This document shows, piece by piece, positions 15,765 through 48,655 of a stretch of DNA of 64,000 bases (position 1 is the first letter of the stretch; every line of letters starts with the position of its first letter). The notes under the pieces were generated by a model, which saw only the letters and a list, made by a program, of their open reading frames with translations, searched no databases and was not told the DNA's origin. The stretch is from Sinorhizobium numidicum (GTDB lineage: Bacteria; Pseudomonadota; Alphaproteobacteria; Rhizobiales; Rhizobiaceae). Both the position numbers and the translations under genes were made by a program. Where the stretch lies: positions 60,001 to 124,000 of the forward strand of contig NZ_CP120368.1 in assembly GCF_029892045.1 (NCBI RefSeq), in the 5' to 3' direction.

Positions 15765-15789
15765 GGAACCTGCTTTGACGCAACTCGTT
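15765..15789 (+). promoter_or_regulatory. EcfG/RpoE2-type promoter of the pyruvyl-transferase operon
   Basis: GGAAC (15765-15769), 16 bases, then CGTT (15786-15789), an exact match to the alphaproteobacterial general-stress promoter pattern. It lies 35 bases before the TTG start at 15824. Confidence 0.8.
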
Positions 15790-15823
15790 AGGTGCCTGAG
15801 TCGTCCGCGAAGAGGTACGTCTG

Positions 15824-16888
15824 TTGCATCAACTGGGTGTGCTGACCTTTCATCAATGCATCAATTACGGATCGTTCTGGCAGACGCGCTGCCTGGTCGA
15901 TGGTCTTCGTGCGTACGGAGCGGATCCTGTCATTCTCAATCATCACTCCGATCGCATTCGCCGCGCCGAGTGGCGCTGCGCGCTGCAACCGCTCCTGCCG
16001 GTGGGGACGAAGCGTGAGGATTTTCCGCTGTATGCGTCGAAGATCAGGAAGTTTGTCGAGGCCTTTGCGTCGCTTCCGCTTACCCCTCCGTTCGCGCTCG
16101 ACAATCCGGCCGATCTTGAAGACTTCGATCTCGTCATCGTCGGCAGCGACGAAGTGTGGAATCTCCGTCATCCCTGGTATGGAGGATATCCGCTGTTCTA
16201 TGGCGAAGGGCTCGCGGCGCGCCGGCTGGCATCTTACGCTGCAACATTCGGCAGCTATCCTGCGTCCAAGGGGCTCGAGAGTTACTGGGCGGACAGCCTG
16301 CGGAAATTCGACGACATTTCCGTTCGTGACGAGAATTCACGAAGTATCATAAAGGACGCGCTCGGGCTCGAACCCACACTTGTCCTCGATCCTTGCCTCC
16401 AGTTTCCCGAAACCATCCCGCGCAGTCAGGACGACAGCTGCGTCTCGTCCTATCTCGCCGTCTATGGGCACTCGTTTCCATACTGGTTTCAGCAGGCGGT
16501 TCGCCGCTCTGCGGCATCGCATTCCGTCTCCGTCGTCAGCATAGGATACCGCAACGATTGGGCAGATGCCCAATGGATCGACGCAGGGCCCGATGATTTC
16601 GCCCGGTTCATTGCGGGCGCCCGTGCGATCGCCACGAACTTCTTTCACGGCTGCGTGTTTTCGCTCGTCAACACCAAGCCTTTCGTCTGCGTCCTCTCCG
16701 ATTATCGTTGCCACAAGATCCACGATCTGGCGCAGATGGTACGGGCGGAGCGACACGTGGTCTCGGAGGAGACGCCGCAGGCGGACTATGACGCGCTCCT
16801 TGGCGGGGCTCCGGATCCGGTCACCGCAGACCAGCTGGCGAGCCTTCGCCTGCGTTCGAGGACGTATTTGAACAATGTCCTCAATTGA
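15824..16888 (+). CDS. Polysaccharide pyruvyl transferase family protein
   Basis: 354 residues from a TTG start with AGAGG ahead. The family pattern is clear: an N-terminal THQCINYGSFWQTRCLVDGL (the N-Y-G-S/N-x-L/WQ motif), FDLVIVGSDEVWNLRHPWYG (conserved GSDExW), SYAATFGSY, FDDISVRDENSRSII, LVLDPCLQF, and a C-terminal IATNFFHGCVFSLVNTKPFV (H-G loop). These enzymes move pyruvyl or related groups onto sugars of exopolysaccharides or wall glycans. The next gene overlaps by 14 bases and encodes an FrhB-like protein, a pairing often seen in polysaccharide clusters. A stress-type promoter lies just upstream. Confidence 0.88.
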   Translation: MHQLGVLTFHQCINYGSFWQTRCLVDGLRAYGADPVILNHHSDRIRRAEWRCALQPLLPVGTKREDFPLYASKIRKFVEAFASLPLTPPFALDNPADLEDFDLVIVGSDEVWNLRHPWYGGYPLFYGEGLAARRLASYAATFGSYPASKGLESYWADSLRKFDDISVRDENSRSIIKDALGLEPTLVLDPCLQFPETIPRSQDDSCVSSYLAVYGHSFPYWFQQAVRRSAASHSVSVVSIGYRNDWADAQWIDAGPDDFARFIAGARAIATNFFHGCVFSLVNTKPFVCVLSDYRCHKIHDLAQMVRAERHVVSEETPQADYDALLGGAPDPVTADQLASLRLRSRTYLNNVLN

Positions 16889-18293
16889 TCCGCCGTCAGA
16901 TGCCGTTCCGCTCGGTCCAAAGGAGATCGTGAAGTCCGGCCTGTGTATCGGCTGCGGCGCCTGTGCCGCGCAGATACCGGGTAACGCAGCCCGAATGCGG
17001 CTCGACCGCTATGGCGAGTTCAAGCCGGCCGCACCCAGCAGGCGGGCCGAAAGCGAGATGCCGGGTTTCGCGCATATCTGCCCGTTCTCGCCACGTTCCC
17101 ATGATGAAGACGAACTTGCCGCCGAGCGTTTTCCCTCGGCCAAACACCGTGACCCGCTGATCGGCCGGTTCGAGGCCGCCTATGTCGGCTATGTGCGCGA
17201 GCAAGACTTTCGGGCCGTCGGCAGTTCCGGAGGTATGGCAAGCTGGATGGCGGCTGAGCTTCTTGACCGGAAGCTGGTCGATGGCGTCGCTCATGTGGTC
17301 CCCGTAGCTGTCTCGGATGACCGCGGCGACCTCTTCCGCTACCAGATATCGCGCACGACCGGGGACGTGCGCGGAGGCGCAAAGTCGCGTTATCACCCCG
17401 TGGAACTCTCGGCAGTTCTTGCCGAGATCAAAGCCTGGCCGGGACGCTATGCGATCGTCGGAATCCCGTGCTTCATCAAGGCGGTGCATCTCCTTCGCAT
17501 GCAGGATTCCCTGCTTCGCGAGCGCATTGTCTTTACGCTCGGCCTCTTCTGCGGACACATGAAGAGCGCGCGCTTCGTCGAGAGCTTCGCATGGCAGATG
17601 GGTGCGACGATGGAAGCGGTGGAGAGCGCGGATTATAGGCTTAAAGACCCACGCAGACCGGCAAATTGGTACACCGCGCAATTGCGCCTCAAAGATGGGC
17701 GTACTCGCAGCAAGGATTGGTGGCATCTCGCCGATGGCGACTGGGGTGCCGGCTTTTTCCAGAATTCAGCCTGCAACTTCTGCGACGATGTCACGGCGGA
17801 AACCGCGGACATTTCGTTCGGGGACGCTTGGGTGGAACCTTACTCGTCCGACGGTCGCGGCACGAATGTCGTCGTCGTTCGCTCTCCTCTGCTGCACGGC
17901 GTCATCAGTGGTGCCATCGCTGAGGGCCGGCTGGAGCTCACGGAGGTTGACAGCGAATTCGTCGTCCGAACGCAGGCCGCCGGCTTCAGGCAACGGCGGG
18001 AGGGCCTCTCCTTTCGCTTGAGCTGGCCACGTTTGGGAGTGCAGCCGAAGAAACGCGTCGCGCCTCGATGCCGGGGCCTGCCCGCCAGACGCATGCTGAT
18101 CTACTGGATGCGCGCTCGGATCAGCGCCTGGAGCCATCGCATGTTCTGGCTTTCCCGGCTGCTTGGCACGCCGAGGCTCTACATTCGCTGGGCCCGAGCT
18201 GTGCTCGCCCTTTACCAAGCTATCACCTATTCGCGAGGGTGGCTCGGAGCGATGGTCGGCGCGGGACGTCGCGACGAGGATGAGAACGGTTGA
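16875..18293 (+). CDS. FrhB-like iron-sulfur/flavin protein (coenzyme F420 hydrogenase beta-subunit family)
   Basis: 472 residues. The N-terminus carries a ferredoxin-like cluster motif, Cys24-x2-Cys27-x2-Cys30 (LCIGCGACAAQIP), with a fourth Cys at 69 (HICPF). The FrhB N- and C-domains follow: YVREQDFRAVGSSGGMASWM, YAIVGIPCFIKAVHLL, TLGLFCGHMKS, then NSACNFCDDVTAETADISFG with further Cys. F420-independent members of this family are common in glycan clusters next to pyruvyl transferases, where they are thought to reduce or modify a nucleotide sugar; that role is inferred. The C-terminal ~70 residues are basic and Trp-rich, possibly membrane-associated. Its 3' end overlaps the convergent glycosidase gene. 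Confidence 0.85.
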   Translation: MSSIDPPSDAVPLGPKEIVKSGLCIGCGACAAQIPGNAARMRLDRYGEFKPAAPSRRAESEMPGFAHICPFSPRSHDEDELAAERFPSAKHRDPLIGRFEAAYVGYVREQDFRAVGSSGGMASWMAAELLDRKLVDGVAHVVPVAVSDDRGDLFRYQISRTTGDVRGGAKSRYHPVELSAVLAEIKAWPGRYAIVGIPCFIKAVHLLRMQDSLLRERIVFTLGLFCGHMKSARFVESFAWQMGATMEAVESADYRLKDPRRPANWYTAQLRLKDGRTRSKDWWHLADGDWGAGFFQNSACNFCDDVTAETADISFGDAWVEPYSSDGRGTNVVVVRSPLLHGVISGAIAEGRLELTEVDSEFVVRTQAAGFRQRREGLSFRLSWPRLGVQPKKRVAPRCRGLPARRMLIYWMRARISAWSHRMFWLSRLLGTPRLYIRWARAVLALYQAITYSRGWLGAMVGAGRRDEDENG

Positions 18294-19288: not shown

Positions 19289-19888
19289 TCAAGGTACGAT
19301 TTCATTCAGCGTCAGAACCTTGGCGCCCCAGTCCCCCGTCGCGACGATCGAGATTGAGGCCGGCGCGATATCGAAGCGCTGCCATGCATCCGTCGGCAGT
19401 CCGAGGATGTGGCAGACGGCGGTTTTGATGACGTCAGCGTGGCTGACAAGGACGACTTTTCTGTCTTCGGCGCGTTCTGCGAGCGTTGCGATCAGATCCA
19501 TTATGCGCGACTGTACGTCCAGCATAGTTTCGCCGCCCGGAGCGCGCATCAGGCTGCGCATGCTGTTCCATCGACCCCAGAGCGGATCGGCATTGAGCAC
19601 CTCGAAAGTCTTGCCGGACCAGGCGCCGAAGTCCACCTCATCCAGAGCATCGGTCGTTTCTACGCGAGCTATCCCGGAGGCGGCGGCGATAGCGGCCGCC
19701 GTTTCCTCGCTGCGCTTGCGCGGGCTTGCGTAAATCGAAGCGATATTCTCGCGCGCCATACGCGTCGCCAGGCGCTCGGCTTGATCGCGGCCTTGGCTCC
19801 CCAGCGAAACATCGCTGGTTCGACCGGCGAGGAAATTGCCGAGATTGTCATGAGCGGCGTGACGCACCAGAAAGAACGTGGTCGTCAC
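19289..19888 (-). CDS. Histidine phosphatase family protein
   Basis: 199 residues. The phospho-acceptor motif is FLVRHAAHD near residue 6 (RHA where RHG is usual). Other hallmarks are the second catalytic Arg in [13 protein letters not shown], the acid in [16 protein letters not shown], and the C-terminal [19 protein letters not shown] with the second catalytic His. These enzymes hydrolyse small phosphoesters. Its start overlaps the stop of the inositol-phosphate synthase gene by 4 bases (ATGA), so the natural guess is a phosphatase releasing free inositol or acting on a downstream sugar phosphate. That is context-based inference. Confidence 0.88.
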
Positions 19889-20988
19889 TCTGCCGCCCCC
19901 AACAAAGCGCCCGTGTCGCCGGCGATGAAATCCTCCAGATGCCTGCGCGCTTCGGCGTCAGTGAATTGGCGGGGCGGAGACTTCATGAAGTAGCTCGACG
20001 GCGCGATCAACGGGCCGCCGATATCGCGGTCGATCGCCAGCTTCGCGCAGCGAACCGCGTCGATGACGACGCCGGCGGAGTTCGGCGAATCCCAGACTTC
20101 GAGCTTGAGTTCGACGTTGAGCGGCACGCTGCCGAATGTCGTGCCTTCGACGCGGATATAGGCGAACTTGCGATCGGCAAGCCATGGCACATGGTCGCTC
20201 GGCCCGACATGAATATCACCGGGCGAAAGCGTTACGTCCATCTGGCTGATGACGGACTGCGTCTTGGAAACCTTCTTCGATTCCAGCCGCTCGCGCTCCA
20301 GCATGTTGAGGAAGTCGGTATTACCGCCGAAATTGAGCTGGTAGGTCCTGTCGATGCGCACGCCGCGATCGCGAAACAGATTGGCGAGCAGGCGATGGAC
20401 GATGGTTGCGCCGACCTGGCTCTTGATGTCGTCGCCAATCAGCGGCAGGCGACGCTCGGTGAATTTCCTTTGCCACGACTTGTCCGAGGCAATGAAGACC
20501 GGAATGCAGTTGATAAAGCCGCAGCCGGCGGCAAGCGCCTGCTCCGCATACCAGCGCGTCGCCACCTCAGAGCCGACCGGCAGATAGGAGACCACAACAT
20601 CCGTTTCGCTCTGCCGCAGGATATGCGAGACGTCGACGGCGGGTTCGTCCGATTCTTCGATTTCCTCCCGGAGATATCGTCCGATACCGTCGAGCGTCCG
20701 GCCGCGCTGGACGAAAACGCCGGTCGGAGCGACCTCTGCGAAACGATAGGTATTGTTCAGCGGGGCATAAATCGCTTCCGCTACATCGCGGCCGACCTTT
20801 GATGCGGCAACGTCGAAAGCCGCGGAAACTTCGATGTCGCGAATGCGACACCCGCCGAGATTCGCATGCATCAGCCCGGGAACCGGCTCGTCCTCGCTGG
20901 CATCTCGATAGAAAGTCAGGCCCTGGACGAGGGAAGACGCGCAGTTCCCGATCCCGACCAGCCCGATACGAATGGATTTCGATCGCAT
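19885..20988 (-). CDS. Myo-inositol-1-phosphate synthase
   Basis: 367 residues from the ATG at 20988 (GGGAG nine bases before). NAD-binding loop [17 protein letters not shown], conserved [39 protein letters not shown], the catalytic region [19 protein letters not shown] with its Lys, and [12 protein letters not shown] are all characteristic of the shorter prokaryotic inositol-phosphate synthase branch. The enzyme makes 1D-myo-inositol-3-phosphate from glucose-6-phosphate. Most rhizobia use inositol as a carbon source, so a synthase inside a glycan cluster points to an inositol-containing product. It leads an operon with the phosphatase and permuted glycosidase, behind a stress-type promoter. 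Confidence 0.92.
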
Positions 20989-21024: not shown

Positions 21025-21049
21025 AACCCGCTCCGCGCGGATTGGTTCC
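21025..21049 (-). promoter_or_regulatory. EcfG/RpoE2-type promoter of the inositol-phosphate synthase operon
   Basis: On the minus strand, GGAAC (complement of 21045-21049), 16 bases, then GGTT (ending at 21025). It lies 36 bases before the ATG at 20988. Confidence 0.78.
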
Positions 21050-22963: not shown

Positions 22964-23989
22964 TCATCGCCCGTAGATCATGTCGAGCACGTCAGCCACG
23001 GCGATCAGCCCCTCATTGTCTGGATCGAATCCTTCCCCGGCGGCAAGGCGCCTCGCCCAGGCCGCCGCTGCGCGTCCACCCCATCGATCCGGAGGAGATA
23101 CCAACAATTCCCTCTGTGTCCCGCGGTGTCGTTCGGCAATGAAATCGAGAAATGATCCATCAACGTTTCTGAAGCTGGCGCCGCCTTCGGTGCCATAAAA
23201 ATCCGCGCCGATGACGGCATCACATCCGGCCTGCAGACGCCAGGAGCAGGCGAGCCGAGCGACGACGCCGGAGGCAAGCTCAATCGTCGCCACGGCATAG
23301 TCCTCGACCTCGTCGCTGTCTCGGCGAATGGGTGACCCATGCGAAAAAAGTCTACTGTCCACCCGGGCGACTTCCGGAAAATCCAGCATCCAAAAAAGGA
23401 GATCGACGAGGTGCACGCCGAGATCGATGACGCAGCCTCCGCCCGACAGTGCCTTGTCATAGAACCAAGACTTGCCGGGGCCATAGGCGTTGTGGAAGAC
23501 AAGATCGACGGCGAAGACGGTGCCGAGCTCTCCCGAGACGATCAGATCGCGGATCCGTCGGATGCCGCTGGTGTGGCGATAGGACAGGTCGACGGCCAAC
23601 AGCTTGCCGGCGCGCCGGGCCGCTTCAACGACAGCCGCCGTTTCGTCCCTCGTTCGACCGAGCGGTTTTTGGCAAAAGACCGCCACGCCCCGCTCCAGAG
23701 CCGCGATCGATTGGGCGGCATGCAGGGCGCTCGGCGTGGCGATGACGACGCCATCCAGCTTCTGGTCGAGCAGCGCTTCGAATGAGCTGACGATTTCGGC
23801 TTCGGGCGCAAGCTCGCGCGCCGCTGCGGCCATTTCCGGCGAGGGATCGAGAATGGCGGCCGCTTCGATGGCACGGGTTTCGACGATGGCTTTCATCCGG
23901 TCGCGGCCGATCCACCCGACGCCGAGAAAGCCGATCCGGGGCCGTTCCGTGCCTTGTGCGAGCGATTCGACCGGCTGGGTGTCACTCAT
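22964..23989 (-). CDS. Gfo/Idh/MocA-family oxidoreductase
   Basis: 341 residues. The Rossmann N-terminus reads IGFLGVGWIGRDRM with a following acidic strand, then LDGVVIATPSALHAAQSIAA and the catalytic-Lys motif AVFCQKPLGRTRDE (QKP instead of the usual EKP). The C-terminal domain has GIRRIRDLIVSGELGTVFAV and VIDLGVHLVDLLFWML with the conserved D-x-x-x-H pair. Such enzymes oxidise or epimerise sugars, inositols or their nucleotide forms using NAD(P). Its start overlaps the end of the MDR dehydrogenase gene by 8 bases. With inositol-phosphate synthase nearby, an inositol or sugar dehydrogenase role is plausible but unproven. Confidence 0.9.
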   Translation of the reverse strand: MSDTQPVESLAQGTERPRIGFLGVGWIGRDRMKAIVETRAIEAAAILDPSPEMAAAARELAPEAEIVSSFEALLDQKLDGVVIATPSALHAAQSIAALERGVAVFCQKPLGRTRDETAAVVEAARRAGKLLAVDLSYRHTSGIRRIRDLIVSGELGTVFAVDLVFHNAYGPGKSWFYDKALSGGGCVIDLGVHLVDLLFWMLDFPEVARVDSRLFSHGSPIRRDSDEVEDYAVATIELASGVVARLACSWRLQAGCDAVIGADFYGTEGGASFRNVDGSFLDFIAERHRGTQRELLVSPPDRWGGRAAAAWARRLAAGEGFDPDNEGLIAVADVLDMIYGR

Positions 23990-24974
23990 GGCAGATCACC
24001 AGCGCTTTGACGAAGCCTTCGGGTCGATCGCGGGTCATGTCCAAGGCCTCCCCCAAGCGTTCGAGCGGGAACTTGTGCGTATAAAGCGGGAACGGAGAAA
24101 GATGGCCTGCGACCACGGCCTCGATCGCTTCGCGAATGCCATGCATGTAGACGGACGGAGCGCGCTCGTGCGCATTGATCACGTCAAGGCCGCGCCAGTT
24201 CCAGAGCTGCATGTTCACCTGCCGCGGCCCATCCTGGTGATAACCGGCAATGACGAGACGTCCACGCTCCTTCGTCAGTTCGGCGGAAAGATCGAGCGGC
24301 CACTGCTTGCCGACCGCCTCGATGACGCAGTCGCAGAAGCGGCCGGAGGTCAGTTGCTTCACCTTCTCGATGATCTGCCAATGATCGTCCATGGCAATCG
24401 CCTCGCTCGCGCCCGCGCGCCTCGCGAGAGCGAGCGAGAACGGCCGGCGTGAAACCGCGATCACACGCGCACCGGCGGCACTTGCCATCTCCGTCAGAAG
24501 AGTGCCGAGGAAACCTATGCCGACGATTGCCACGGTCTCCCCCGCTTTGATGGCGCTGCGCCGAAAGATATTGAAGGCGCAACCGAGCGGCTCGGCCGGA
24601 AAAGCTTCACCGGCGAGTGCGGCGGGCAGGCGAGCGACCGCGCTCTGATCCGCGATGTCGTGCGTCGCATAGGCGTGATAGGAAAGCGCGGCAACCCGGT
24701 CGCCCGGTGCGAGATCGCGCACGTCCTCGCCAACCGCATCAATGGTCCCCCATCCTTCATGGCCGAGCGCTCCGGGCTCCGTCGGAAACTGCATCCAATC
24801 CGGCCCCGCCCAGGGCACCAGGTTGGAGGCGCAGACGCCGCAGCCTTCAAGCCTGATCCTGACTTGTCCGGGTCCGGGCTCCGGCAGCGGAAGCGTTTCG
24901 ATCTGCACCCTGCCCGGGCCGGTAATGATTGCCGCCGACATCGTCTCGGTTCTTGGCTGCGCCGCAATATCCAT
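23982..24974 (-). CDS. Medium-chain (MDR) zinc-type dehydrogenase, single-zinc form
   Basis: 330 residues from the ATG at 24974 (GGGAGGAAGGAC directly ahead; the longer frame is not needed). GroES-like domain: CGVCASNLVPW (catalytic-zinc Cys) and ALGHEGWGTIDAVGEDV. Rossmann domain: ETVAIVGIGFLGTLLTEMAS and VIAVSRRPF. The four-Cys structural-zinc lobe of classical alcohol dehydrogenases is missing, as in sorbitol/threonine-type variants acting on polyols or sugar derivatives. First gene of a two-gene operon with the Gfo/Idh enzyme. A stress-type promoter lies about 140 bases upstream. Confidence 0.88.
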   Translation of the reverse strand: MDIAAQPRTETMSAAIITGPGRVQIETLPLPEPGPGQVRIRLEGCGVCASNLVPWAGPDWMQFPTEPGALGHEGWGTIDAVGEDVRDLAPGDRVAALSYHAYATHDIADQSAVARLPAALAGEAFPAEPLGCAFNIFRRSAIKAGETVAIVGIGFLGTLLTEMASAAGARVIAVSRRPFSLALARRAGASEAIAMDDHWQIIEKVKQLTSGRFCDCVIEAVGKQWPLDLSAELTKERGRLVIAGYHQDGPRQVNMQLWNWRGLDVINAHERAPSVYMHGIREAIEAVVAGHLSPFPLYTHKFPLERLGEALDMTRDRPEGFVKALVICHE

Positions 24975-25110: not shown

Positions 25111-25135
25111 AACTTCATGTTCTGGCTTTTGTTCC
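25111..25135 (-). promoter_or_regulatory. EcfG/RpoE2-type promoter of the MDR/Gfo operon
   Basis: Minus strand: GGAAC (complement of 25131-25135), 16 bases, AGTT (ending 25111). Leader to the ATG at 24974 is about 130 bases, the longest in this set, so the call is a little less certain. Confidence 0.65.
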
Positions 25136-25244: not shown

Positions 25245-25269
25245 GGAACATTTGCGTCGCACGTTTGTT
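25245..25269 (+). promoter_or_regulatory. EcfG/RpoE2-type promoter of the eight-gene glycan operon
   Basis: GGAAC (25245-25249), 16 bases, TGTT (25266-25269). It lies about 45 bases before the ATG at 25313 and would drive the run of eight close or overlapping genes up to 33861. Confidence 0.78.
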
Positions 25270-25312
25270 GGAGCTTTGTCTCTATCTCTGATTGATGATG
25301 GTCAGGTGCATT

Positions 25313-28691: not shown

Positions 28692-28694
28692 CCG

Positions 28695-32022: not shown

Positions 32023-32044
32023 GCACCGAAAGGAGAAACGGCCG

Positions 32045-33085: not shown

Positions 33086-33087
33086 CC

Positions 33088-34629: not shown

Positions 34630-34654
34630 GGAACATCCCGGGCGGGGGAAAGTT
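34630..34654 (+). promoter_or_regulatory. EcfG/RpoE2-type promoter of the P450 operon
   Basis: GGAAC (34630-34634), 16 bases, AGTT (34651-34654). The -10 element ends 30 bases before the ATG at 34685, leaving a short leader. Confidence 0.8.
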
Positions 34655-38574: not shown

Positions 38575-38599
38575 AACCGCTGCTGGCCGGGAGAGTTCC
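38575..38599 (-). promoter_or_regulatory. EcfG/RpoE2-type promoter of the 187-residue protein gene
   Basis: Minus strand: GGAAC (complement of 38595-38599), 16 bases, GGTT (ending 38575), about 28 bases before the ATG at 38546. Confidence 0.8.
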
Positions 38600-38745: not shown

Positions 38746-38771
38746 GGAACATTTCGTCCGGCCGTCGGGTT
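38746..38771 (+). promoter_or_regulatory. EcfG/RpoE2-type promoter of ku-ligD (17-base spacer)
   Basis: GGAAC (38746-38750), 17 bases, GGTT (38768-38771). The only site in the set with a 17-base spacer, which the consensus allows. The leader to the Ku ATG at 38928 is about 150 bases. Confidence 0.65.
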
Positions 38772-38927: not shown

Positions 38928-39794
38928 ATGCCCGTGGCACCAAGGGCTAACTGGAAAGGTTTCATCAAGATCGGCGAGGTGAGTTGCCCCGTGGCTCTCT
39001 ACACCGCCGCATCGACCTCGGAACGCATTGCGTTCCATACCGTGAACCGCGCGACGGGTCATCGGGTCCGTCGCCAGTTTGTCGACAGCGAGACCGGCAA
39101 GCCGGTCGAGCGTGATGACCAGGTCAAGGGGTATGAAACGGCGTCCGAAGAATTCATCGTGCTTGAGCCCGAAGAGATAGAGGCTGCTGTCCCCGAGAGC
39201 GACAAGACACTTTCGGTTTCCGCCTTCATCGCTTGCGATGACATCGACGACGTCTACTTCGACAAGCCGTATTATCTTGCGCCGGCTGACCGTCACGCGG
39301 AGGAGGCCTATGTTCTGATCCGCGAAGGAATGCGCTCGAAACAGGTGGCCGCGCTTGCGCGCACCGTGCTGTTCCGGCGGGTTCGCACCCTGTTGATTCG
39401 CACCCACGGACCGGGCCTGATCGCAACGACGCTGAACTTCGACTACGAGGTCCGCTCCGCCAAGAACGCTTTCGCGGATGTGCCCGATCTTAAGATCGAG
39501 GGCGAGATGCTGGACCTGGCCGAGCACATCATCAAGACAAAAAAAGGCAAGTTCGATCCAAAGGAATACGATGACAGGTACGAGGAGGCGCTTGCCGAGC
39601 TGGTCAAGGCGAAGCTCGAGGGCAAGAAGATTGCCGCCCGGAAGGAGCCGAAGCGCGAGAAGGTCGTCGACCTGATATCGGCGCTGCGCGAAAGCGCCGG
39701 GCTGATGCACAAGCCTGCAGCGGCATCCAAGACGAAACCCAAAAGGGCCAGCAAAGCCAGCAAGGAAAGTGCTTCACGGCGAAAGGCGAGCTGA
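38928..39794 (+). CDS. ku: Ku protein of bacterial non-homologous end joining (first copy)
   Basis: 288 residues from the ATG at 38928 (AAGGAGAG ahead). The bacterial Ku core is evident: NWKGFIKIGEVSCPVALYTA, RIAFHTVNRATGHRVRRQFV, VKGYETASEEFIVLEPEEIE, YFDKPYYLAPADRHAEEAYV, LARTVLFRRVRTLLIRTHGP, and LKIEGEMLDLAEHIIKTKKG. A Lys-rich C-terminal tail (SKTKPKRASKASK) may bind DNA or recruit LigD. Ku rings load onto double-strand ends and attract LigD, encoded 3 bases downstream in the same operon. A second, divergent Ku is encoded beyond ligD. Confidence 0.95.
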   Translation: MPVAPRANWKGFIKIGEVSCPVALYTAASTSERIAFHTVNRATGHRVRRQFVDSETGKPVERDDQVKGYETASEEFIVLEPEEIEAAVPESDKTLSVSAFIACDDIDDVYFDKPYYLAPADRHAEEAYVLIREGMRSKQVAALARTVLFRRVRTLLIRTHGPGLIATTLNFDYEVRSAKNAFADVPDLKIEGEMLDLAEHIIKTKKGKFDPKEYDDRYEEALAELVKAKLEGKKIAARKEPKREKVVDLISALRESAGLMHKPAAASKTKPKRASKASKESASRRKAS

Positions 39795-39797
39795 TCG

Positions 39798-42368
39798 ATG
39801 GCGACGCTCAAGACCTATCGCCAAAAACGCGACTTCGGGACAACGCCGGAGCCGAAGGGCAGACGGGCGCGCAAATCCGGAAACAGCTTCGTTGTCCAGA
39901 AGCACGACGCCACCCGGCTGCATTACGACTTCCGGCTGGAGTTGGACGGCGTCTTGAAGAGCTGGGCGGTCACGAAAGGGCCGAGCCTCGTTCCCGGGGA
40001 AAAGCGCCTGGCGGTCCATGTCGAGGATCATCCGCTCGAATACGGGGATTTCGAGGGCACCATCCCGAAAGGCGAATATGGCGGCGGCACAGTCATCGTC
40101 TGGGACCGCGGAACCTGGACGCCGGTTCACGACGCGGCCAAAGGCTATGCCAAGGGCCATATGGAATTCGAATTGAAGGGAGAGAAGCTTGGCGGCCGCT
40201 GGCATCTCGTCAGGATGCACCACAGGCCCGGTGAGAAGCGCGAGAACTGGCTGCTGATCAAGGGCGAGGACGATGCAGCGCGATCGGAAGGCGCGCCGGA
40301 TATATTGGAGGAGCGGCCGGAATCGGTGAAGACCGGCCGGGATATAAAGGAGGTGGCCGGCGAAGAGCCCGGATGGTCGTCGAAGACCGGCAAGATCAGC
40401 AGGAAGGGCAGGTCGCAGGCGAAGAGCAAGCGCCCGGCCGCGACGGATGAGCGAGAGGCGCCGGTTCTTCCGGATCTGTCGCGGATCAAAGGGGCGAAGA
40501 AAGCGCCGCTTCCCGCGTTCGTAGAGCCGACATTGGCGACGTTGATGAAGGCGCCTCCCACCGGTCCCCGCTGGATTCATGAGATCAAGTTCGATGGCTA
40601 TCGGCTGCTCGCCCGGATCGAGGCGGGCCGCGTGAAGCTTCTGACCCGCAGCGGTCTGGACTGGACCGAAAAATTCGGCAAGGCCATCGTTGCTGCCTTG
40701 CAGGCAATGCCGATCGGCAGCGCGTTCATCGACGGTGAGCTCGTTGTCGAGCGCGCTTCGGGCGCATCCGATTTTTCGGCGCTTCAGGCTGACCTCAGCG
40801 AGGGCCGGTCCGACCGCTTCGTCTTCTACGTCTTCGATCTGCTCTATCTCGACGGTTTCGACCTGAGATCCTTGCCGCTCATCGAGCGCAAGCAATTGCT
40901 CAGCAAGCTCGCTGGTTCGGGGTTGGGGCTCATTCGTTACAGCGACCATTTTGACGAGCACGGCGCGCTGGTGCTGCGGCATGCCTGCCGCCTTGGCCTC
41001 GAAGGCGTGGTCTCCAAGCTCCGGGACGCAAGCCATCGTCCCGGTCGTGGCAAGGCGTGGATCAAATCGAAGTGCTCGGCCCGGCAGGAGTTCGTCGTCG
41101 CCGGCTACGTACCCTCCACCGTTTCGCGCCGGGCGATCGGTTCGCTCATTCTCGGCGTCTATGACGGTGATAGGCTCGAACATGTCGGCCGCGTCGGCAC
41201 TGGGTTTACGGGTGCGGTAGCCGAAGAACTCTTCCGCCGCCTCGATGGCATGCGGATTCGGGAAAGCCCGTTCTCTGAGCGCTTGACGGCGGACGAGGCA
41301 CGGCAGGCGCGTTTCGTTCGGCCCGAGCTTGTCGCCGAGGTGGAATTCGGCGCATGGACCGCCGATGGCAACCTGCGGCACGCCTCCTTCCGGGGTTTGA
41401 GGGAGGACAAGGCCCCCAGTGATGTAATGCGCGAAGGCTCGAAAGCTGCGGCCAAACTGCCGAAGCCGCCTCGCCGCAGGGTGACGCTCACGCATCCCGA
41501 TCGCCTTTACTGGCCGGATGAAGGTGTGACGAAGGAGGGGCTTGCGGATTACTATACCGAAGTCTGGCGCTACATCGCTCCCTATGTCGTCGGCCGGCCG
41601 CTGGCGCTCGTGCGCTGTCCGAGCGGCATAACGGGCGAGAAGTTTTTCCAGAAGCATGCCTGGAAGGGCCTCAATCCCAATATTGTGCTGGTCAAGGACC
41701 CGAAGGAAAAATCCGAGGAGCCGCTGATTGCGATCGACGATCTCGATGGTCTGATCGGCCTGGTGCAGTCCGCCGTTCTGGAGATTCACCCATGGGGATC
41801 GACCGCTGCCGACTGGGAGCGCCCGGACACGATCATCATGGATCTGGATCCCGGCGAAGGCGTGCCGTGGAATGCCGTCATCGCGGCCGCGAGCGAAACG
41901 AGGGAGCGCCTTGCCGGCGAAGGACTGGCATCCTTCGTTAAGACATCCGGCGGCAAGGGTTTGCATGTGGTGGCGCCGCTGAAGCCAAAGGCCGAATGGC
42001 CGGAGGTGAAGGCGTTCACGAAAGCAATCGCCGATGCCATGGCGTTGGACAGTCCGGATCGGTTCGTTTCGACCATCACCAAATCGAAGCGGCGCGGCAA
42101 GATCCTGGTCGATTATCTGCGCAATCAACGCGGCATGACCGCGGTTGCCCCTTATTCCACCCGGGCGCGGCCGGGCGCTGCGGTATCCATGCCGCTTGCC
42201 TGGGATGAATTGAACGAGGGCATAGGCCCGCCCTATTTTACCGTTTCCAACACACCTACGCGGCTGGTAGCACTGGCAGCCGATCCGTGGGAGGAGTTTC
42301 GCGCGGCGGCCGCGCCGCTAGAAGCGAAGAAGAAAGGCAGAAGCGGCAGAGCCTTTGCGGAACATTGA
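39798..42368 (+). CDS. ligD: Multifunctional DNA ligase D (phosphoesterase-ligase-polymerase)
   Basis: 856 residues with three domains in the order PE-LIG-POL. 3'-phosphoesterase (about 25-170): FVVQKHDATRLHYDFRLELD and IPKGEYGGGTVIVWDRG. ATP-dependent ligase (about 235-530): HEIKFDGYRLLARIE with the adenylated Lys near residue 264, then SAFIDGELVVER and GLEGVVSKLRD. Primase-polymerase (about 560-845): LTHPDRLYWPDEGVTKEGLA, KFFQKHAWKGL, the metal-binding MDLDPGEG (Asp 682 and 684), and FVKTSGGKGLHVVAPL. It processes and seals double-strand breaks with Ku. It ends 14 bases from the convergent second ku gene. Confidence 0.96.
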   Translation: MATLKTYRQKRDFGTTPEPKGRRARKSGNSFVVQKHDATRLHYDFRLELDGVLKSWAVTKGPSLVPGEKRLAVHVEDHPLEYGDFEGTIPKGEYGGGTVIVWDRGTWTPVHDAAKGYAKGHMEFELKGEKLGGRWHLVRMHHRPGEKRENWLLIKGEDDAARSEGAPDILEERPESVKTGRDIKEVAGEEPGWSSKTGKISRKGRSQAKSKRPAATDEREAPVLPDLSRIKGAKKAPLPAFVEPTLATLMKAPPTGPRWIHEIKFDGYRLLARIEAGRVKLLTRSGLDWTEKFGKAIVAALQAMPIGSAFIDGELVVERASGASDFSALQADLSEGRSDRFVFYVFDLLYLDGFDLRSLPLIERKQLLSKLAGSGLGLIRYSDHFDEHGALVLRHACRLGLEGVVSKLRDASHRPGRGKAWIKSKCSARQEFVVAGYVPSTVSRRAIGSLILGVYDGDRLEHVGRVGTGFTGAVAEELFRRLDGMRIRESPFSERLTADEARQARFVRPELVAEVEFGAWTADGNLRHASFRGLREDKAPSDVMREGSKAAAKLPKPPRRRVTLTHPDRLYWPDEGVTKEGLADYYTEVWRYIAPYVVGRPLALVRCPSGITGEKFFQKHAWKGLNPNIVLVKDPKEKSEEPLIAIDDLDGLIGLVQSAVLEIHPWGSTAADWERPDTIIMDLDPGEGVPWNAVIAAASETRERLAGEGLASFVKTSGGKGLHVVAPLKPKAEWPEVKAFTKAIADAMALDSPDRFVSTITKSKRRGKILVDYLRNQRGMTAVAPYSTRARPGAAVSMPLAWDELNEGIGPPYFTVSNTPTRLVALAADPWEEFRAAAAPLEAKKKGRSGRAFAEH

Positions 42369-42382: not shown

Positions 42383-43195
42383 TTAGCGGCGCTTGGGCGA
42401 CTTTCCCTCCGACGATATGCTCTTTCGCAGCGCATCCATGATGTTGATGACGTTGCTGGGCGGCTCGGTCTCTGCTTCTGTCTTCGCTTTGCCCGCGCGT
42501 TTCTTGCCCTTCTTTTTCGAAGCGATGATATCGAGCAAACGATCCTGTACCGGATCGCTGACCATGGCAGGATTCCAGGACTTGGTCCGCTCGTCGATCA
42601 GCTTTTCCACCAGCGTCATGAGCTTCGCGTCCGGTTTGCTCTCTTTGATATGGCCAAAATAATCCTTTTCACTGCGAACCTCGTCGCCATAACGAAGCGT
42701 CCAGAGGACTATGCCCTTATCGCGAGGCTCCAACATGACTGCGCGCTCGCGCCGGTACATCACCAGCCGTGAAATCCCGACCATTTTGGTCGAAGCCATG
42801 GCGTCGCGGATCACCGAAAACGCCTCTTCGCCGACGGGGTCATCGGGCGTCAGGTAGTGCGGCTTGTCATACCAGATCCATTCGATGCCATCGCGCGGAA
42901 CGAACATGCTGATATCGATCGTGCGGGTGCTCTCAAGCGCCACTGCCTCGATCTCTTCGTCCTCGAGAATCACGTAGTCGTCTTCGCCACGCTGGTAGCC
43001 CTTGACCTCGTCGTCCTCGTCGACCGGCTTTCCGGTCACCGCGTCGACATACTGGCTGGCGAGACGATTGCCGGTTTTCCGGTTGAGAGTGTGAAATCTC
43101 ACTTTCTCATTTTCGGAGGTGGCCGGTGTCATCGCCACCGGGCAGGTCACCAGCGACAGCTTCAGATATCCTTTCCAGAACGAACGCGGTGCCAT
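42383..43195 (-). CDS. ku: Ku protein of bacterial non-homologous end joining (second copy)
   Basis: 270 residues from the ATG at 43195, with GGGAGG eight bases ahead. Core text: SFWKGYLKLSLVTCPVAMTP, VRFHTLNRKTGNRLASQYVD, VKGYQRGEDDYVILEDEEIE, WIWYDKPHYLTPDDPVGEEA, ISRLVMYRRERAVMLEPRDK, and LMTLVEKLIDERTKSWNPAM. The C-terminus is Lys-rich but differs from the first copy. The two Ku proteins diverge enough that each may homodimerise separately or they may form a heterodimer. It has a near-perfect stress-type promoter of its own and is convergent with ligD. Confidence 0.95.
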   Translation of the reverse strand: MAPRSFWKGYLKLSLVTCPVAMTPATSENEKVRFHTLNRKTGNRLASQYVDAVTGKPVDEDDEVKGYQRGEDDYVILEDEEIEAVALESTRTIDISMFVPRDGIEWIWYDKPHYLTPDDPVGEEAFSVIRDAMASTKMVGISRLVMYRRERAVMLEPRDKGIVLWTLRYGDEVRSEKDYFGHIKESKPDAKLMTLVEKLIDERTKSWNPAMVSDPVQDRLLDIIASKKKGKKRAGKAKTEAETEPPSNVINIMDALRKSISSEGKSPKRR

Positions 43196-43291: not shown

Positions 43292-43316
43292 GGAACATCT
43301 TCAGCCGCTCGCGGTT
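43292..43316 (+). promoter_or_regulatory. EcfG/RpoE2-type promoter of the SDR gene
   Basis: GGAAC (43292-43296), 16 bases, GGTT (43313-43316), 34 bases before the ATG at 43351. It is divergent from the second ku promoter 50 bases away. Confidence 0.8.
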
Positions 43317-45800: not shown

Positions 45801-46511
45801 TTAAAGTTCAAGTATGGCATAGGGGCGGCCGGTGGGCTTTTCCACATGCGTGGCGACATTGAAAACGGGGGCACCGCCCGGCGTCTGCCCCTCATAGACG
45901 CCCTTGTGCGCATGGCCGTGAACGACGGCACTGACCTCAAAACGGTCGATTGTCTCCGCAAGGCGGGATGAGCCGAGAAACGGGTAGATTTCCTTGGGTT
46001 CTCCGGCGACCGTTTCGGCAATCGGCGCGTAGTGCAGAACCACCAGCGCACGCGGCGTCTTGGCCGTTCTCAAGGCATTTTCGAGCCGCATCGCCTCGTC
46101 GACGCTCTCCGAAACCATCGTCTTTATCGCGGCCTCGCCGAACGCCCCCAACATATGACGCCCAAAGCCGCCGATGAAGCCCTTCGTCCCGGCGAATTCC
46201 ACGCCCGCAATTTCGACGGTCTGGCCGTCGAGAAGATGAACGCCGGCCTTCACGAGAATTGACGAGATTTCCTCGACCGCATTGCATTGGTGATCATGGT
46301 TTCCGAGAACGGCGACAACGGGGATGGTGCAGGACTTCAAGTCGGAGACCAGAAGCTCGGCTTCCGCGGGTTTGCCGAGATCCGTCAGGTCGCCGGCTAT
46401 GACGAGCACGTCCGCGACGCGCGATATCTCTGAAAACAGCTCTGTGTAGGAGACCGACCGGTCCTCTTTCACGTGGAGGTCCGCCACGGCGGCGATCTTC
46501 ACTTTGCTCAT
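45801..46511 (-). CDS. Calcineurin-like metallophosphoesterase
   Basis: 236 residues with all metal-binding motifs in order: VADLHVKED (D-x-H), VIAGDLTDLG (GDxxD), VAVLGNHDHQ (GNHD), VVLHYAPI (H) and VVHGHAHKGVYEG (GHxH). It has no signal peptide, so it is cytoplasmic. Such enzymes cleave phosphomono- or diesters, including nucleotides. Its start overlaps the stop of the nucleotidyltransferase gene by 4 bases, an arrangement suggesting one enzyme makes and the other removes a nucleotide or phosphate mark. The pair shares a stress-type promoter. Confidence 0.9.
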   Translation of the reverse strand: MSKVKIAAVADLHVKEDRSVSYTELFSEISRVADVLVIAGDLTDLGKPAEAELLVSDLKSCTIPVVAVLGNHDHQCNAVEEISSILVKAGVHLLDGQTVEIAGVEFAGTKGFIGGFGRHMLGAFGEAAIKTMVSESVDEAMRLENALRTAKTPRALVVLHYAPIAETVAGEPKEIYPFLGSSRLAETIDRFEVSAVVHGHAHKGVYEGQTPGGAPVFNVATHVEKPTGRPYAILEL

Positions 46512-47326
46512 GATACCTGTTCCTCTATTCCGTCGCGCATCTCGCCGTCGCCGCCGACATCACCGAATCCCCATTCCTTGACGTCGATTTCGTAGTCGAT
46601 ATGGGAATACATCCTTCCACGGCAGATTTTCGTCTGCGGCAGCGGCAGGTCGCGTTGCGCCGCCAGCCTGCTCAGGAGCTCGTCCATCAGCCAGAGCGGA
46701 ACCTTGTTGCGCTCCGAAGGGTATATCCATCGGAAATTGAGAAGATGGATCAACAGGACTTCCCAGTGAGCTTCCATGTATTCGAGCAATCTTGTCCAAT
46801 CGATCCGGTCGTGCGCCTTGAGGATGACGTGCGCCACGTCGGCGCCGTCGTACCGGTCGCGAAACTGGATGAAGGATTTCGACCAGACCAATTCCGTCGG
46901 CGAAACGATCGAAACCGGGCAGGCGTTGAGTTCTACCGGCACCGCATGCGTAAACCAGGCATCGGTCACCAGCATGGTTCCGTTCGGCGAGGCGAAGATC
47001 ACATCGAAGAAGAACCTTCCCTTGAACACTTTCCCGAGCCATCGGTCGTCTTCGATCTCGACGGCGTATCCAAGGGATTTGAAGTGCTGGAGGATGCGGG
47101 CGCAGTCGCCCGCCTTGCAGAACACGTCGAGATCTTTCGTCGGCCTCGATATGCCGGTATAGGCACTCACCGCGAAAGTGCCCGCGATCAGAAACGGAAT
47201 TTTCGACCGCACAAGCTCCGCGATCGCTTCGGCAACAAAGGCTTCGGCTTCTTCATTGACGAGTTGCGGCAGGGCGAGGGGCTCGGCCGTGTTGGCATCC
47301 GGCTGCGGCGGCATGGCTGACGTCAT
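46508..47326 (-). CDS. Nucleotidyltransferase-fold protein
   Basis: 272 residues. The nucleotidyltransferase motif is IPFLIAGTFAVSAYTGISRP followed by TKDLDVFC (G-T/S...DxD). The third acidic residue probably lies in FFFDVIFASPNGT. Then VSPTELVWSKSFIQFRDRYD, GADVAHVILKAHDRIDWTRL and a C-terminal helical part (HLLNFRWIYPSERNKVPLWL). This resembles the nucleotidyltransferases distantly related to MNT/AbiEii toxins, but the size and partner do not match a classic toxin-antitoxin pair. Two-gene operon with the metallophosphoesterase. Ribosome-binding site GGGAG. Confidence 0.82.
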   Translation of the reverse strand: MTSAMPPQPDANTAEPLALPQLVNEEAEAFVAEAIAELVRSKIPFLIAGTFAVSAYTGISRPTKDLDVFCKAGDCARILQHFKSLGYAVEIEDDRWLGKVFKGRFFFDVIFASPNGTMLVTDAWFTHAVPVELNACPVSIVSPTELVWSKSFIQFRDRYDGADVAHVILKAHDRIDWTRLLEYMEAHWEVLLIHLLNFRWIYPSERNKVPLWLMDELLSRLAAQRDLPLPQTKICRGRMYSHIDYEIDVKEWGFGDVGGDGEMRDGIEEQVS

Positions 47327-47359: not shown

Positions 47360-47384
47360 AACACCTCAGCCTTGCGGAAGTTCC
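47360..47384 (-). promoter_or_regulatory. EcfG/RpoE2-type promoter of the nucleotidyltransferase/phosphoesterase operon
   Basis: Minus strand: GGAAC (complement of 47380-47384), 16 bases, TGTT (ending 47360), 33 bases before the ATG at 47326. Confidence 0.78.
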
Positions 47385-47535: not shown

Positions 47536-48141
47536 TTATGGCATCATGCTGCGATAGCGTTCCCGTTCGCGCCGCACCTGATCGAGCGTGTACGGATCCA
47601 GCCGCTCGTCGAACCGTGTCCACCCTTCTTCGGTGTAGACGCGCCGGCGCAGCGATGGGTCCACTCTGTTCCATTTCCTCATGATCGCGTCCGCTTCAGC
47701 GACCATCATATCATCCACCTTTGCGGTAACAAGCGTTCCGCCGCGGCGCACGCCTTCCGCGTAGAGCTGGGCGTCCTCTTCCCTGACGCCGGAATCGGTG
47801 AGCGCGCCGACAATGCCGCCAGCGGCTGCGCCGGCGACGGCACCCGCCGCAGCGCCTGCTGCCGTCGACGCCAGCCATCCTGCGGCGACAACCGGGCCGA
47901 CCCCCGGAATTGCCATCAGGCCGAGCCCCGTCAACAGACCGATGGCACCGCCGCCGGCAGCGCCGAGGCCGGCGCCCGCTCCCGCCCCTGTCGCGGCTCC
48001 GGAGCTAACGTCGGAATAGCGATCGCCGGCATTGTTGGCGACGATACTGATGTTATCCGAGGGAATCCCGACGCCTTCCAATTCGCTGACGACCTTCCGG
48101 GCATCGTCGTAGTCGTCAAAGAGTCCTGAAATGGTTCTCAT
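47536..48141 (-). CDS. General-stress-type protein with YflT-like N-terminus and glycine-zipper core
   Basis: 201 residues. The N-terminus (ISGLFDDYDDARKVVSELEG, then VGIPSDNISIVANNAGD) matches the small domain of YflT/YdgA-like stress proteins. A Gly/Ala-rich zipper follows (about 50-120), typical of membrane-associating glycine zippers. A charged C-terminal part (EEDAQLYAEGVRRGGTLVTA; WTRFDERLDPYTLDQVRRER) ends the protein. Proteins of this kind are common in rhizobial general-stress regulons. It lies 39 bases after the PepSY-like gene and probably shares its transcript. A GAGCGGCC...GGCCGCTC stem lies just after the stop, without a T run. Confidence 0.8.
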   Translation of the reverse strand: MRTISGLFDDYDDARKVVSELEGVGIPSDNISIVANNAGDRYSDVSSGAATGAGAGAGLGAAGGGAIGLLTGLGLMAIPGVGPVVAAGWLASTAAGAAAGAVAGAAAGGIVGALTDSGVREEDAQLYAEGVRRGGTLVTAKVDDMMVAEADAIMRKWNRVDPSLRRRVYTEEGWTRFDERLDPYTLDQVRRERERYRSMMP

Positions 48142-48180
48142 TCTTTTTCCTCCTCTGGACCCAGATGGGCGCTTCGCCGC

Positions 48181-48492
48181 CTAGAGGGCGGTAATGTTGC
48201 CCTGGAAGTCGAGCGCGACCGAGACGGACTCTCCGTCCTTCATTGCCGTCGCCCGCCAAACGCCCTGGTGGTCGAGCTTCAGCCCTTTGACATCGGTGTA
48301 GCCGGCCTCTTCGATACGCTTCTTCGCCTGGTCCTCTGTGAAGCTGTTCTCGCCGGCGACCGGCGCCGCCGGGTTTTGCGTCCCGGGCGTGGCGATGGCC
48401 GGTGTGTTTCCGGAGGGAGATGCTGTCTGTGCAAGGGCCGGCATTGCAGCTGCGCTTACCAGCACTGCAACGCCAAAGATGGTATTTTTCAT
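48181..48492 (-). CDS. Exported PepSY-like protein
   Basis: 103 residues from the ATG at 48492 (AAGAGG ahead). A signal peptide, MKNTIFGVAVLVSAAAMPAL, is cleaved after ALAQ. A Pro/Ala/Thr linker leads into a small domain of the PepSY type: FTEDQAKKRIEEAGYTDVKG, LKLDHQGVWRATAMKDGESV, SVALDFQGNITAL. Such periplasmic proteins may act as protease inhibitors or stress proteins. First gene of a two-gene stress operon. Confidence 0.85.
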   Translation of the reverse strand: MKNTIFGVAVLVSAAAMPALAQTASPSGNTPAIATPGTQNPAAPVAGENSFTEDQAKKRIEEAGYTDVKGLKLDHQGVWRATAMKDGESVSVALDFQGNITAL

Positions 48493-48536
48493 GGCCTTAC
48501 CTCTTTTCGGGAATCGCGTTGGCTTCCCGCCATCCA

Positions 48537-48561
48537 AACTGGCCGCTCATGGTTTGGTTCC
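48537..48561 (-). promoter_or_regulatory. EcfG/RpoE2-type promoter of the PepSY-like/YflT-like operon
   Basis: Minus strand: GGAAC (complement of 48557-48561), 16 bases, AGTT (ending at 48537), 44 bases before the ATG at 48492. Confidence 0.78.
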
Positions 48562-48630
48562 GTGGCGCTCGCCCGTGCGAAGGAGTGTCAACGCAGATGG
48601 CTCTCGTTCGCTGCAGACCGAAGCACGCGG

Positions 48631-48655
48631 AACTTTATTGACGTTCTTCGGTTGC
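48631..48655 (+). promoter_or_regulatory. EcfG/RpoE2-type promoter of the 49-residue protein gene
   Basis: GGAAC (48631-48635), 16 bases, GGTT (48652-48655), 36 bases before the ATG at 48692. It diverges from the promoter at 48537-48561. Confidence 0.8.

What the first reader, a model, noticed from the sequence alone, without database searches (positions are those of the whole stretch)
15765..48655. Fifteen EcfG/RpoE2-type promoters cluster over 33 kb
Read by eye, GGAAC-N16-NGTT (one with N17) occurs at 15765, 21025, 25111, 25245, 34167, 34572, 34630, 37269, 38575, 38746, 43217, 43292, 47360, 48537 and 48631. Each is on the strand of, and 20-150 bases before, a well-supported start. Fourteen have identical spacing from GGAAC to TT. 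None was found before the genes at 4-14 kb or before the nucleoside genes. A general-stress regulon is usually scattered; here many members look physically clustered, including several divergent promoter pairs.
Basis: partly seen in the sequence, partly recalled or inferred. Interest (0 to 1): 0.85.

Follow-up and report, generated by a model that had tools for sequence, protein, structure and literature searches.

The report
Island of general-stress promoters
A 33-kb stretch of a Sinorhizobium genome carries about sixteen separate switches of the type used by the general stress response, most of them conserved in relatives, which suggests that many stress-survival genes sit together in islands rather than scattered.

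Summary
All 15 sites exist (one coordinate is off by 2), and a 16th, 25156+, was missed. They match the EcfG/RpoE2 promoter motif, GGAAC-N16/17-NGTT. The interval is the densest 33-kb window in the 4.67 Mb I could map completely: 17 sites, one of them probably accidental, against a maximum of 11 in 2000 uniform simulations. Two other windows exceed every simulation and a third equals the maximum.

Comparative evidence shows that most sites are real promoters. The motif recurs before the same genes in relatives: ino1 17/17, first epimerase 70/79, zinc dehydrogenase 51/68, SDR 24/25, nucleotidyltransferase 35/38, PepSY 11/11. It is nearly absent before genes inside operons (MetPhos 0/38; six others 0 of 58-81) and in a reversed-motif control. 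An EcfG-NepR-PhyR locus with such promoters is present.

Beyond the finding, flanks of a conserved glycosyltransferase cluster in 80 alphaproteobacterial loci hold 178 promoter-like sites, against 4 for the reversed motif, before 174 genes of 82 families. Clustering with changing membership is therefore widespread. Sigma dependence was not tested. One same-genus genome without that cluster showed no significant clustering. I file this as a known regulon in an organisation I did not find described.

The parts
15765..15789 (+). EcfG-type promoter before polysaccharide pyruvyl transferase (15824-16888)
   Evidence: 35 bp. Weakest site: motif before 1 of 6 orthologues (S. meliloti only); matrix score 12.8, lowest among the listed sites
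19885..20988 (-). inositol-3-phosphate synthase (ino1)
   Evidence: PF01658; TIGR03450 at 533 bits, below its 638 cut-off
21025..21049 (-). EcfG-type promoter of ino1
   Evidence: Conserved 17 of 17, reversed control 1
22964..24974 (-). zinc-binding dehydrogenase and Gfo/Idh/MocA oxidoreductase, probable operon
   Evidence: second gene gfo has 0 of 63 motifs upstream
25111..25135 (-). EcfG-type promoter of the dehydrogenase operon
   Evidence: Conserved 51 of 68, reversed 0
   Evidence: Counterparts at -113 to -129 in eight Sinorhizobium/Ensifer loci among the first 12 epi1 rows printed
25245..25269 (+). main EcfG-type promoter of the epimerase/glycosyltransferase operon
   Evidence: Motif before 70 of 79, reversed 1; matrix score 22.5, highest in window
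25295..33861 (+). probable operon: two sugar epimerases/dehydratases, GT4, three Glyco_trans_1_2 glycosyltransferases, third epimerase (UDP-glucuronate decarboxylase by S. meliloti annotation), TIGR04290 methyltransferase
   Evidence: internal genes have motif upstream in 0/79, 0/79, 2/80, 0/81, 0/81, 1/78, 0/58
34167..34191 (-). EcfG-type promoter of conserved 63-aa ORF 33889-34080
   Evidence: ORF has relatives in 22 of 81 loci; motif before 6 of 15, reversed 1
34572..34596 (-). EcfG-type promoter of 114-aa protein 34200-34544
   Evidence: 7 of 7; 9 of 10
34630..34654 (+). EcfG-type promoter of P450/peroxygenase-like gene 34685-35977
   Evidence: 3 of 3
34685..35977 (+). cytochrome P450, CYP152 fatty-acid peroxygenase-like
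   Evidence: PF00067; NF053744 363 bits, below its 600 cut-off
36634..37140 (-). DUF892 ferritin-like protein
   Evidence: PF05974
37269..37293 (-). EcfG-type promoter of the DUF892 gene
   Evidence: 5 of 8 (35% identity floor); 4 of 4 (45% floor)
38575..38599 (-). EcfG-type promoter of 187-aa protein 37983-38546
   Evidence: 3 of 3
38746..38771 (+). EcfG-type promoter (N17) of Ku-LigD
   Evidence: 3 of 3, but reversed control 1 of 3; no orthologue passed the 45% floor
38928..42368 (+). Ku and DNA ligase D (end joining)
   Evidence: TIGR02772 and TIGR02776 over cut-off
42383..43195 (-). second Ku
   Evidence: PF02735
43217..43241 (-). EcfG-type promoter of second Ku
   Evidence: 3 of 3, reversed 1 of 3
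43292..43316 (+). EcfG-type promoter of SDR gene 43351-44334
   Evidence: 24 of 25, reversed 0
45801..47326 (-). nucleotidyltransferase-like and metallophosphatase genes, probable operon
   Evidence: PF14907 at 28 bits, below its 31.2 cut-off; PF00149; second gene has 0 of 38 motifs upstream
47360..47384 (-). EcfG-type promoter of that operon
   Evidence: 35 of 38, reversed 0
47536..48492 (-). PepSY-like small protein and YflT-domain protein, probably one operon
   Evidence: PF13670 just under its cut-off; motif before YflT in only 1 of 10
48537..48561 (-). EcfG-type promoter of PepSY/YflT
   Evidence: 11 of 11
48629..48653 (+). EcfG-type promoter of 49-aa hydrophilic protein 48692-48841
   Evidence: 11 of 12

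Best explanation
Window 15765-48653 is a general-stress island. About 16 EcfG (RpoE2, group ECF15) promoters drive about 15 separate transcription units: an inositol/sugar-nucleotide/glycosyltransferase pathway, a fatty-acid-peroxygenase-like P450, a ferritin-like protein, two Ku proteins with LigD, an SDR, a nucleotidyltransferase/phosphatase pair and several small proteins. Under stress, phosphorylated PhyR (RsiB) would bind NepR (RsiA) and free EcfG, which would turn on all units at once (inferred from the known pathway). Shown here: the motif, its position, its conservation, its clustering and the presence of the regulators. Inferred: operon boundaries, sigma dependence, and that the islands formed by genes moving one at a time, each with its own promoter, into or out of stress-rich neighbourhoods.
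For: Motif excess over shuffles. Top window genome-wide. Motif before operon heads but hardly before internal genes, reversed control 0 or 1 per gene. A weight matrix trained on 169 sites from other genomes (all fitting the pattern, so not an independent test) gives 17 distinct sites in the island (the 15, 25156 and a variant at 37339+), 1 elsewhere in the window and 8 in 240 kb of background stretches. An ECF sigma gene, named EcfG by its place beside nepR and phyR, and EcfG-type sites before nepR and phyR at C2:2.876 Mb. The published consensus GGAAC-N16-CGTT was seen in passages of PMC3892343 (R. etli) and PMC7083833 (Sphingopyxis). In PMC6599016 (passages) a Ku upstream region was tested by lacZ fusion as a potential direct EcfG target, in a figure titled in vivo confirmation. 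Widespread clustering: 178 promoter-like flank sites against 4 reversed in 80 loci; 109 observed against 13.4 expected in 28 of those. Changing membership: 82 families; SDR and nucleotidyltransferase lie near the glycosyltransferase genes in some same-genus genomes and far away or on other contigs in others.
Against: No transcript or sigma-mutant data for this genome. The motif stands before only 1 of 6 orthologues for 15765 and 6 of 15 for 34167. The Ku sites rest on 3 orthologues each, with 1 reversed-control hit each. The ADH gene inside the island (44585) has no exact motif here, and only 7 of 13 or 7 of 29 orthologues have one. Many of the compared genomes are close relatives, so the counts are not independent events. 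Same-genus genome G010, which lacks the glycosyltransferase cluster, shows no significant clustering: top 4 GGAACA sites in 33 kb, uniform mean 3.6.
Confidence: 0.9

Rival explanations
1. Chance or composition artefact: a weak 8-base pattern read by eye in G+C-rich DNA.
For: Genome-wide the bare pattern barely exceeds its reversed control, 410 to 377, so most single matches in the genome are noise.
Against: 19 against 3.2 in shuffles; top window with P about 8e-10 after multiplying by the number of start points; conservation in relatives with reversed control near 0.
Confidence: 0.01
2. The island is one biosynthetic gene cluster, so the promoters simply belong to one pathway.
For: Window 15.8-33.9 kb is largely sugar-nucleotide, inositol and glycosyltransferase genes, kept together in S. 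meliloti and, for the core, in most of 80 loci.
Against: That part holds only 5 of the 16 sites. The rest precede Ku/LigD, P450, DUF892, SDR, nucleotidyltransferase and small proteins. In other genomes the flanking genes differ (82 families).
Confidence: 0.05
3. The clustering is a by-product of horizontally acquired accessory DNA collecting at insertion hot spots; stress promoters are merely common in such DNA.
For: Membership changes between species; the S. meliloti copy lies on pSymB whereas here it lies on the 3.77-Mb contig.
Against: G+C of the island, 58-64%, equals its surroundings. None of the 60 window ORF entries scanned against Pfam (some are alternative frames of one place) matched an integrase or transposase. 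The 12 background stretches, 6 of them on the 2.3-Mb replicon, have low density.
Confidence: 0.25
4. Another ECF sigma factor (an EcfG paralogue such as RpoE5, or an RpoE6-type ECF26 factor) reads these promoters.
For: PMC6180224 (passages) reports that RpoE6 targets overlap the RpoE2 regulon and that the motifs are similar. A second NepR gene lies at C2:775.6 kb in another motif-rich stretch.
Against: -35 is GGAAC, not the GGAATA that the same passages give for ECF26; RpoE5 overexpression had a single putative target in S. meliloti (same passages).
Confidence: 0.08

Closest known systems
RpoE2 (sigma-E2) regulon of Sinorhizobium meliloti (PMC3616915: section 17 and passages; PMC6180224: passages)
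   Same: Same promoter class and regulators (RsiA/NepR, RsiB/PhyR, RpoE2/EcfG). A syntenic glycosyltransferase cluster lies on pSymB, with motifs before its pyruvyl transferase, dehydrogenase and epimerase genes in L055.
   Different: Not described as physically clustered in what I saw; the word 'cluster' occurs 0 times in the main text of either paper. In the 46.6-kb S. meliloti stretch no gene is annotated as Ku, LigD or P450 (that gene table is incomplete).
EcfG1/EcfG2 regulons of Rhizobium etli (PMC3892343, passages)
   Same: GGAAC-N16-CGTT promoter consensus.
   Different: The passages seen speak of a highly conserved ecfG1-phyR region, not of islands of target genes.
EcfG regulon of Sphingomonas melonis Fr1 (PMC6599016, passages)
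   Same: Ku tested as a potential direct target by lacZ fusion; Zn-dependent alcohol dehydrogenase and glycosyltransferase genes tested as putative indirect targets.
   Different: Of the glycosyltransferase genes in the table passages seen, #1750 has a near match to the motif and #3506-3508 poor ones; no islands are mentioned in those passages.

Membership tests
EcfG/RpoE2 (ECF15) promoters | -35 GGAAC and -10 NGTT with 16-17 bp spacer | tested here: met
   consensus in PMC3892343 and PMC7083833 (passages)
EcfG/RpoE2 (ECF15) promoters | Placed shortly upstream of a same-strand start | tested here: met
   14 of 15 at 22-137 bp, one at 157 bp
EcfG/RpoE2 (ECF15) promoters | Conserved before orthologous genes, spacer free to vary | tested here: met
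   weak for 15765 (1 of 6) and 34167 (6 of 15)
EcfG/RpoE2 (ECF15) promoters | Genome encodes EcfG, NepR and PhyR | tested here: met
   the sigma gene matches general ECF sigma families and is called EcfG by its place
EcfG/RpoE2 (ECF15) promoters | Transcript starts a few bases after -10, dependent on EcfG | not testable with these tools
   Needs 5'-end mapping in wild type and mutant
Clustered regulon (stress island) | Site density above the genome's own rate | tested here: met
   17 in 33 kb against at most 11 in 2000 simulations
Clustered regulon (stress island) | Clustering present in other genomes | tested here: met
   80 loci, 28 genomes, G001; not in G010
Mobile genomic island | Atypical base composition | tested here: not met
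Mobile genomic island | Integrase/transposase and a flanking tRNA | tested here: inconclusive
   None among 60 ORF entries scanned; one tRNA-Met at 3364-3440, 12 kb from the island; not all ORFs were scanned

The most novel reading that the evidence does not exclude
In many alphaproteobacteria the general stress regulon is organised as an archipelago of islands. Genes enter and leave one by one, each carrying its own EcfG promoter, and a conserved glycosyltransferase/epimerase cluster is a recurrent nucleus. Proximity itself is then selected, for example because co-transfer into any host with EcfG works at once, or because a scarce sigma factor finds clustered promoters faster.
Probability: 0.4. 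Interest if true: 0.75.

Novelty: new variant of a known kind. Interest (0 to 1): 0.6.

Why it matters
Bacterial sigma regulons are usually treated as scattered lists of targets. If the alphaproteobacterial stress regulon is physically clustered, with members exchanged between islands, then promoter density becomes a way to find unknown stress genes (several small, unnamed proteins here), and the question whether position matters for stress regulation becomes testable by moving a unit out of its island. It also points to a widespread stress-linked glycosyltransferase cluster of unknown product.

Tried and rejected
Chance: rejected by shuffles, genome-wide ranking and conservation. Single biosynthetic cluster: rejected as the full account. 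Mobile island by composition: not supported. Extra matches 43294-, 43566+ and 53800- were set aside as palindromic or coding.

Limits of my tests. The 58 sites in 148 kb of other motif-rich stretches are not an independent test of clustering, because I chose those stretches for their sites; the same holds for four stretches of G001 (38 sites in 80 kb). Ten other stretches of G001 and G002 (200 kb) gave 10 matches and 10 reversed matches. The 28 loci were picked by me for taxonomic spread after one search had shown flank counts, so the 80-locus figures are the unselected ones. Of the 174 flank genes, 14 are ino1, which belongs to the biosynthetic cluster itself. Families are single-linkage BLAST groups at E 1e-5, on ORFs called with codon usage of this window. 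Clustering in G010 was tested on 86 of its 91 sites with an assumed contig length and was not significant. In one search I used 2.30 Mb for C1 (true 2.32 Mb); one search uses the true length.

Literature: searches were aimed at clustering or genome organisation of this regulon; their listings (25 of 28, 10 of 93, 15 of 176, 10 of 41 and 3 of 3 papers shown) contain no title on physical clustering of EcfG targets, and I saw only titles and abstract starts for most. The library lacks most subscription papers, including the 2007 S. meliloti RpoE2 paper. One search, a lead on the S. meliloti ndi locus recalled from memory, led nowhere; one search tried S. meliloti locus tags recalled from memory and found no paper.
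Full report
What was claimed and what is there. A mechanical scan finds 19 matches in the window, against 3.2 in shuffles with a maximum of 8. All fifteen are among them; the last starts at 48629, not 48631. One further match, 25156+, is probably a second promoter of the first epimerase gene: eight Sinorhizobium/Ensifer loci among the first twelve rows printed have a site at the corresponding place. The other three matches look accidental. A simple gene caller puts 14 of 15 sites 22-137 bp before a same-strand start and one at 157 bp.

Is it more than chance in this genome? The window is G000:C2:60001-124000 of a 6.72-Mb genome in three contigs. Its genus is Sinorhizobium/Ensifer: same-genus genomes coincide in contig number and position with loci of that genus. 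The bare pattern is common: 410 matches, 377 for the pattern read backwards. By the base after GGAAC, counts against reversed controls are A 116 to 59, T 80 to 77, C 104 to 95. 280 of these 300 positions were listed; the twenty others follow the last ones listed, on the far part of C2 and on C3, so I used the fully listed region (C1 and C2 to 2.34 Mb; 243 sites, 236 after merging overlapping palindromes). The densest 33-kb windows hold 17 (this interval, 43566+ included), 16 (C1:1.213 Mb), 12 (C1:1.685 Mb), 11 (C1:1.286 Mb) and 8 (C2:0.771 Mb, holding a second nepR). Two thousand uniform placements gave a mean maximum of 6.9 and a highest of 11. Three windows therefore exceed every simulation, the fourth equals the largest, and the fifth is within the simulated range. 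These five windows, 3.5% of the region, hold 64 of 236 sites. Twelve background stretches, 240 kb, hold 8 matches, 2 of them promoter-like.

Are the sites functional? I fetched 80 loci around the second glycosyltransferase gene from named genomes of Sinorhizobium, Rhizobium, Mesorhizobium, Devosia, Chelatococcus, Rhodobacteraceae and others (the best 80 of at least 546), plus the S. meliloti region, and searched 300 bp upstream of each orthologue. First genes: ino1 17 of 17, zinc dehydrogenase 51 of 68, first epimerase 70 of 79, 114-aa protein 7 of 7, P450 3 of 3, DUF892 5 of 8, Ku 3 of 3 and 3 of 3, ADH 7 of 13, pyruvyl transferase 1 of 5. Other genes: epimerase 2 0 of 79, GT4 0 of 79, the three other glycosyltransferases 2 of 80, 0 of 81 and 0 of 81, epimerase 3 1 of 78, methyltransferase 0 of 58, gfo 0 of 63, histidine phosphatase 0 of 16, FrhB 0 of 5, the 585-aa protein 0 of 15. 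The reversed motif gave 0 or 1 per gene, including 1 of 3 for each Ku. For the second half of the island I searched 33 same-genus genomes, the own one included, and pooled their 55 other loci with those already held: SDR 24 of 25 distinct upstream sequences, nucleotidyltransferase 35 of 38, PepSY 11 of 11, the 49-aa protein 11 of 12, the 187-aa protein 3 of 3, the 63-aa protein 6 of 15, ADH 7 of 29, the 107-aa protein 1 of 7; metallophosphatase (second in its operon) 0 of 38, YflT 1 of 10; reversed 0 or 1. Many of these genomes are close relatives, so the counts are not independent. A weight matrix trained on 169 sites from other genomes finds 17 distinct sites in the island (the fifteen, 25156+ and a variant at 37339+), one more in the window (53800-) and 8 in 240 kb of background; because all training sites fit the pattern, this is close to the pattern itself.

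The regulators. An ECF sigma gene (184 aa, called EcfG by its place), NepR and PhyR (with Pfam's PhyR domains) lie together at C2:2.876 Mb, with EcfG-type sites before nepR and phyR. A second nepR lies at C2:775.6 kb. The published consensus, seen in passages of PMC3892343 and PMC7083833, is GGAAC-N16-CGTT. PMC3616915 (section 17 read) reports 202 S. meliloti genes raised more than twofold by rpoE2 overexpression, and 76 rpoE2-dependent genes with a mapped start behind such a motif. PMC6599016 (passages) names a Ku gene as a potential direct EcfG target tested by lacZ fusion.

Clustering beyond this genome. Outside the glycosyltransferase core, the flanks of the 80 loci (692 kb) hold 249 merged motif matches against 40 reversed. 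Promoter-like placements number 178 against 4. They precede 174 genes in 66 of 80 loci, falling into 82 families; 11 families have a match in this island (33 kb), 14 in the other own-genome motif-rich stretches (132 kb), 1 in the background stretches (240 kb) and none in the rest of the window. For 28 of the loci I compared flank counts with each genome's own density: 109 observed, 13.4 expected, 15 of 28 with P below 0.01, and one with none. Chelatococcus caeni is striking: 23 distinct places in 40 kb (rows), a stretch that includes the locus L150 if contig C1 is the record, as length and coordinates suggest. Same-genus G001 has a significant island (8 GGAACA sites in 33 kb, simulated maximum 7), whereas G010, which lacks the glycosyltransferase cluster, does not (top 4, mean 3.6).

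Membership changes within the genus. Here the glycosyltransferase, SDR and nucleotidyltransferase genes lie within 19 kb. In G001 they lie within about 18 kb. In G002 the SDR is about 30 kb away and the nucleotidyltransferase about 550 kb away. In G003 and G009 the SDR is within 25 kb but the nucleotidyltransferase is on another contig. In G005 and G007 the SDR and nucleotidyltransferase are together, on another contig than the glycosyltransferase. Contig breaks may hide some linkages.

How it most likely works. Stress activates PhyR, which removes NepR from EcfG; EcfG-RNA polymerase then fires all these promoters (known pathway, inferred here). The products would alter envelope glycoconjugates and inositol metabolism, store or detoxify iron, repair double-strand breaks and oxidise fatty acids (inferred from families). 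The likely origin of the island is stepwise gain of self-contained units, since each has its own promoter and partners differ between species; whether proximity is itself useful is open.

Verdict. The promoter class and regulon are known. The physical clustering, with changing membership and a recurrent nucleus, was not found described in the searches named under Tried and rejected, in a library that lacks most subscription papers.

Noticed in passing
window 25295-33861 and loci L098-L177: A conserved cluster of epimerases, one GT4 and three Glyco_trans_1_2 glycosyltransferases and a TIGR04290 methyltransferase occurs widely in Rhizobiales, Devosia and Rhodobacteraceae, mostly behind EcfG-type motifs; its product is unknown.
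   Followed up: partly
L058 and L059 (C1:1205000-1244999): Another motif-rich region of the same genome holds alpha-amylase-family enzymes, a starch-synthase-like protein, an ATP-dependent DNA ligase, a uracil-DNA glycosylase-family protein and a BON protein.
   Followed up: partly
G037:C1:1557609-1598001 (genome of L150, Chelatococcus caeni): 23 distinct EcfG-type matches in 40 kb, with several divergent pairs.
   Followed up: partly
loci L226, L238, L243, L244: The nucleotidyltransferase-like gene carries a TAG inside the match in four same-genus genomes.
   Followed up: no
window 21134-22891: 585-aa protein beside ino1 with no Pfam family, found in 15 loci without an EcfG-type site upstream.
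   Followed up: no
L063:2599-4545: Protein with a protein-isoaspartate methyltransferase domain and an erythromycin-esterase-family domain behind an EcfG-type site.
   Followed up: no
window 33889-34080, 34200-34544, 48692-48841: Small uncharacterised proteins (63, 114, 49 aa) with relatives elsewhere, often behind EcfG-type motifs.
   Followed up: partly
L055:40621-41199: S. meliloti 'nutrient deprivation-induced protein' annotated about 9 kb beyond the syntenic glycosyltransferase cluster.
   Followed up: no
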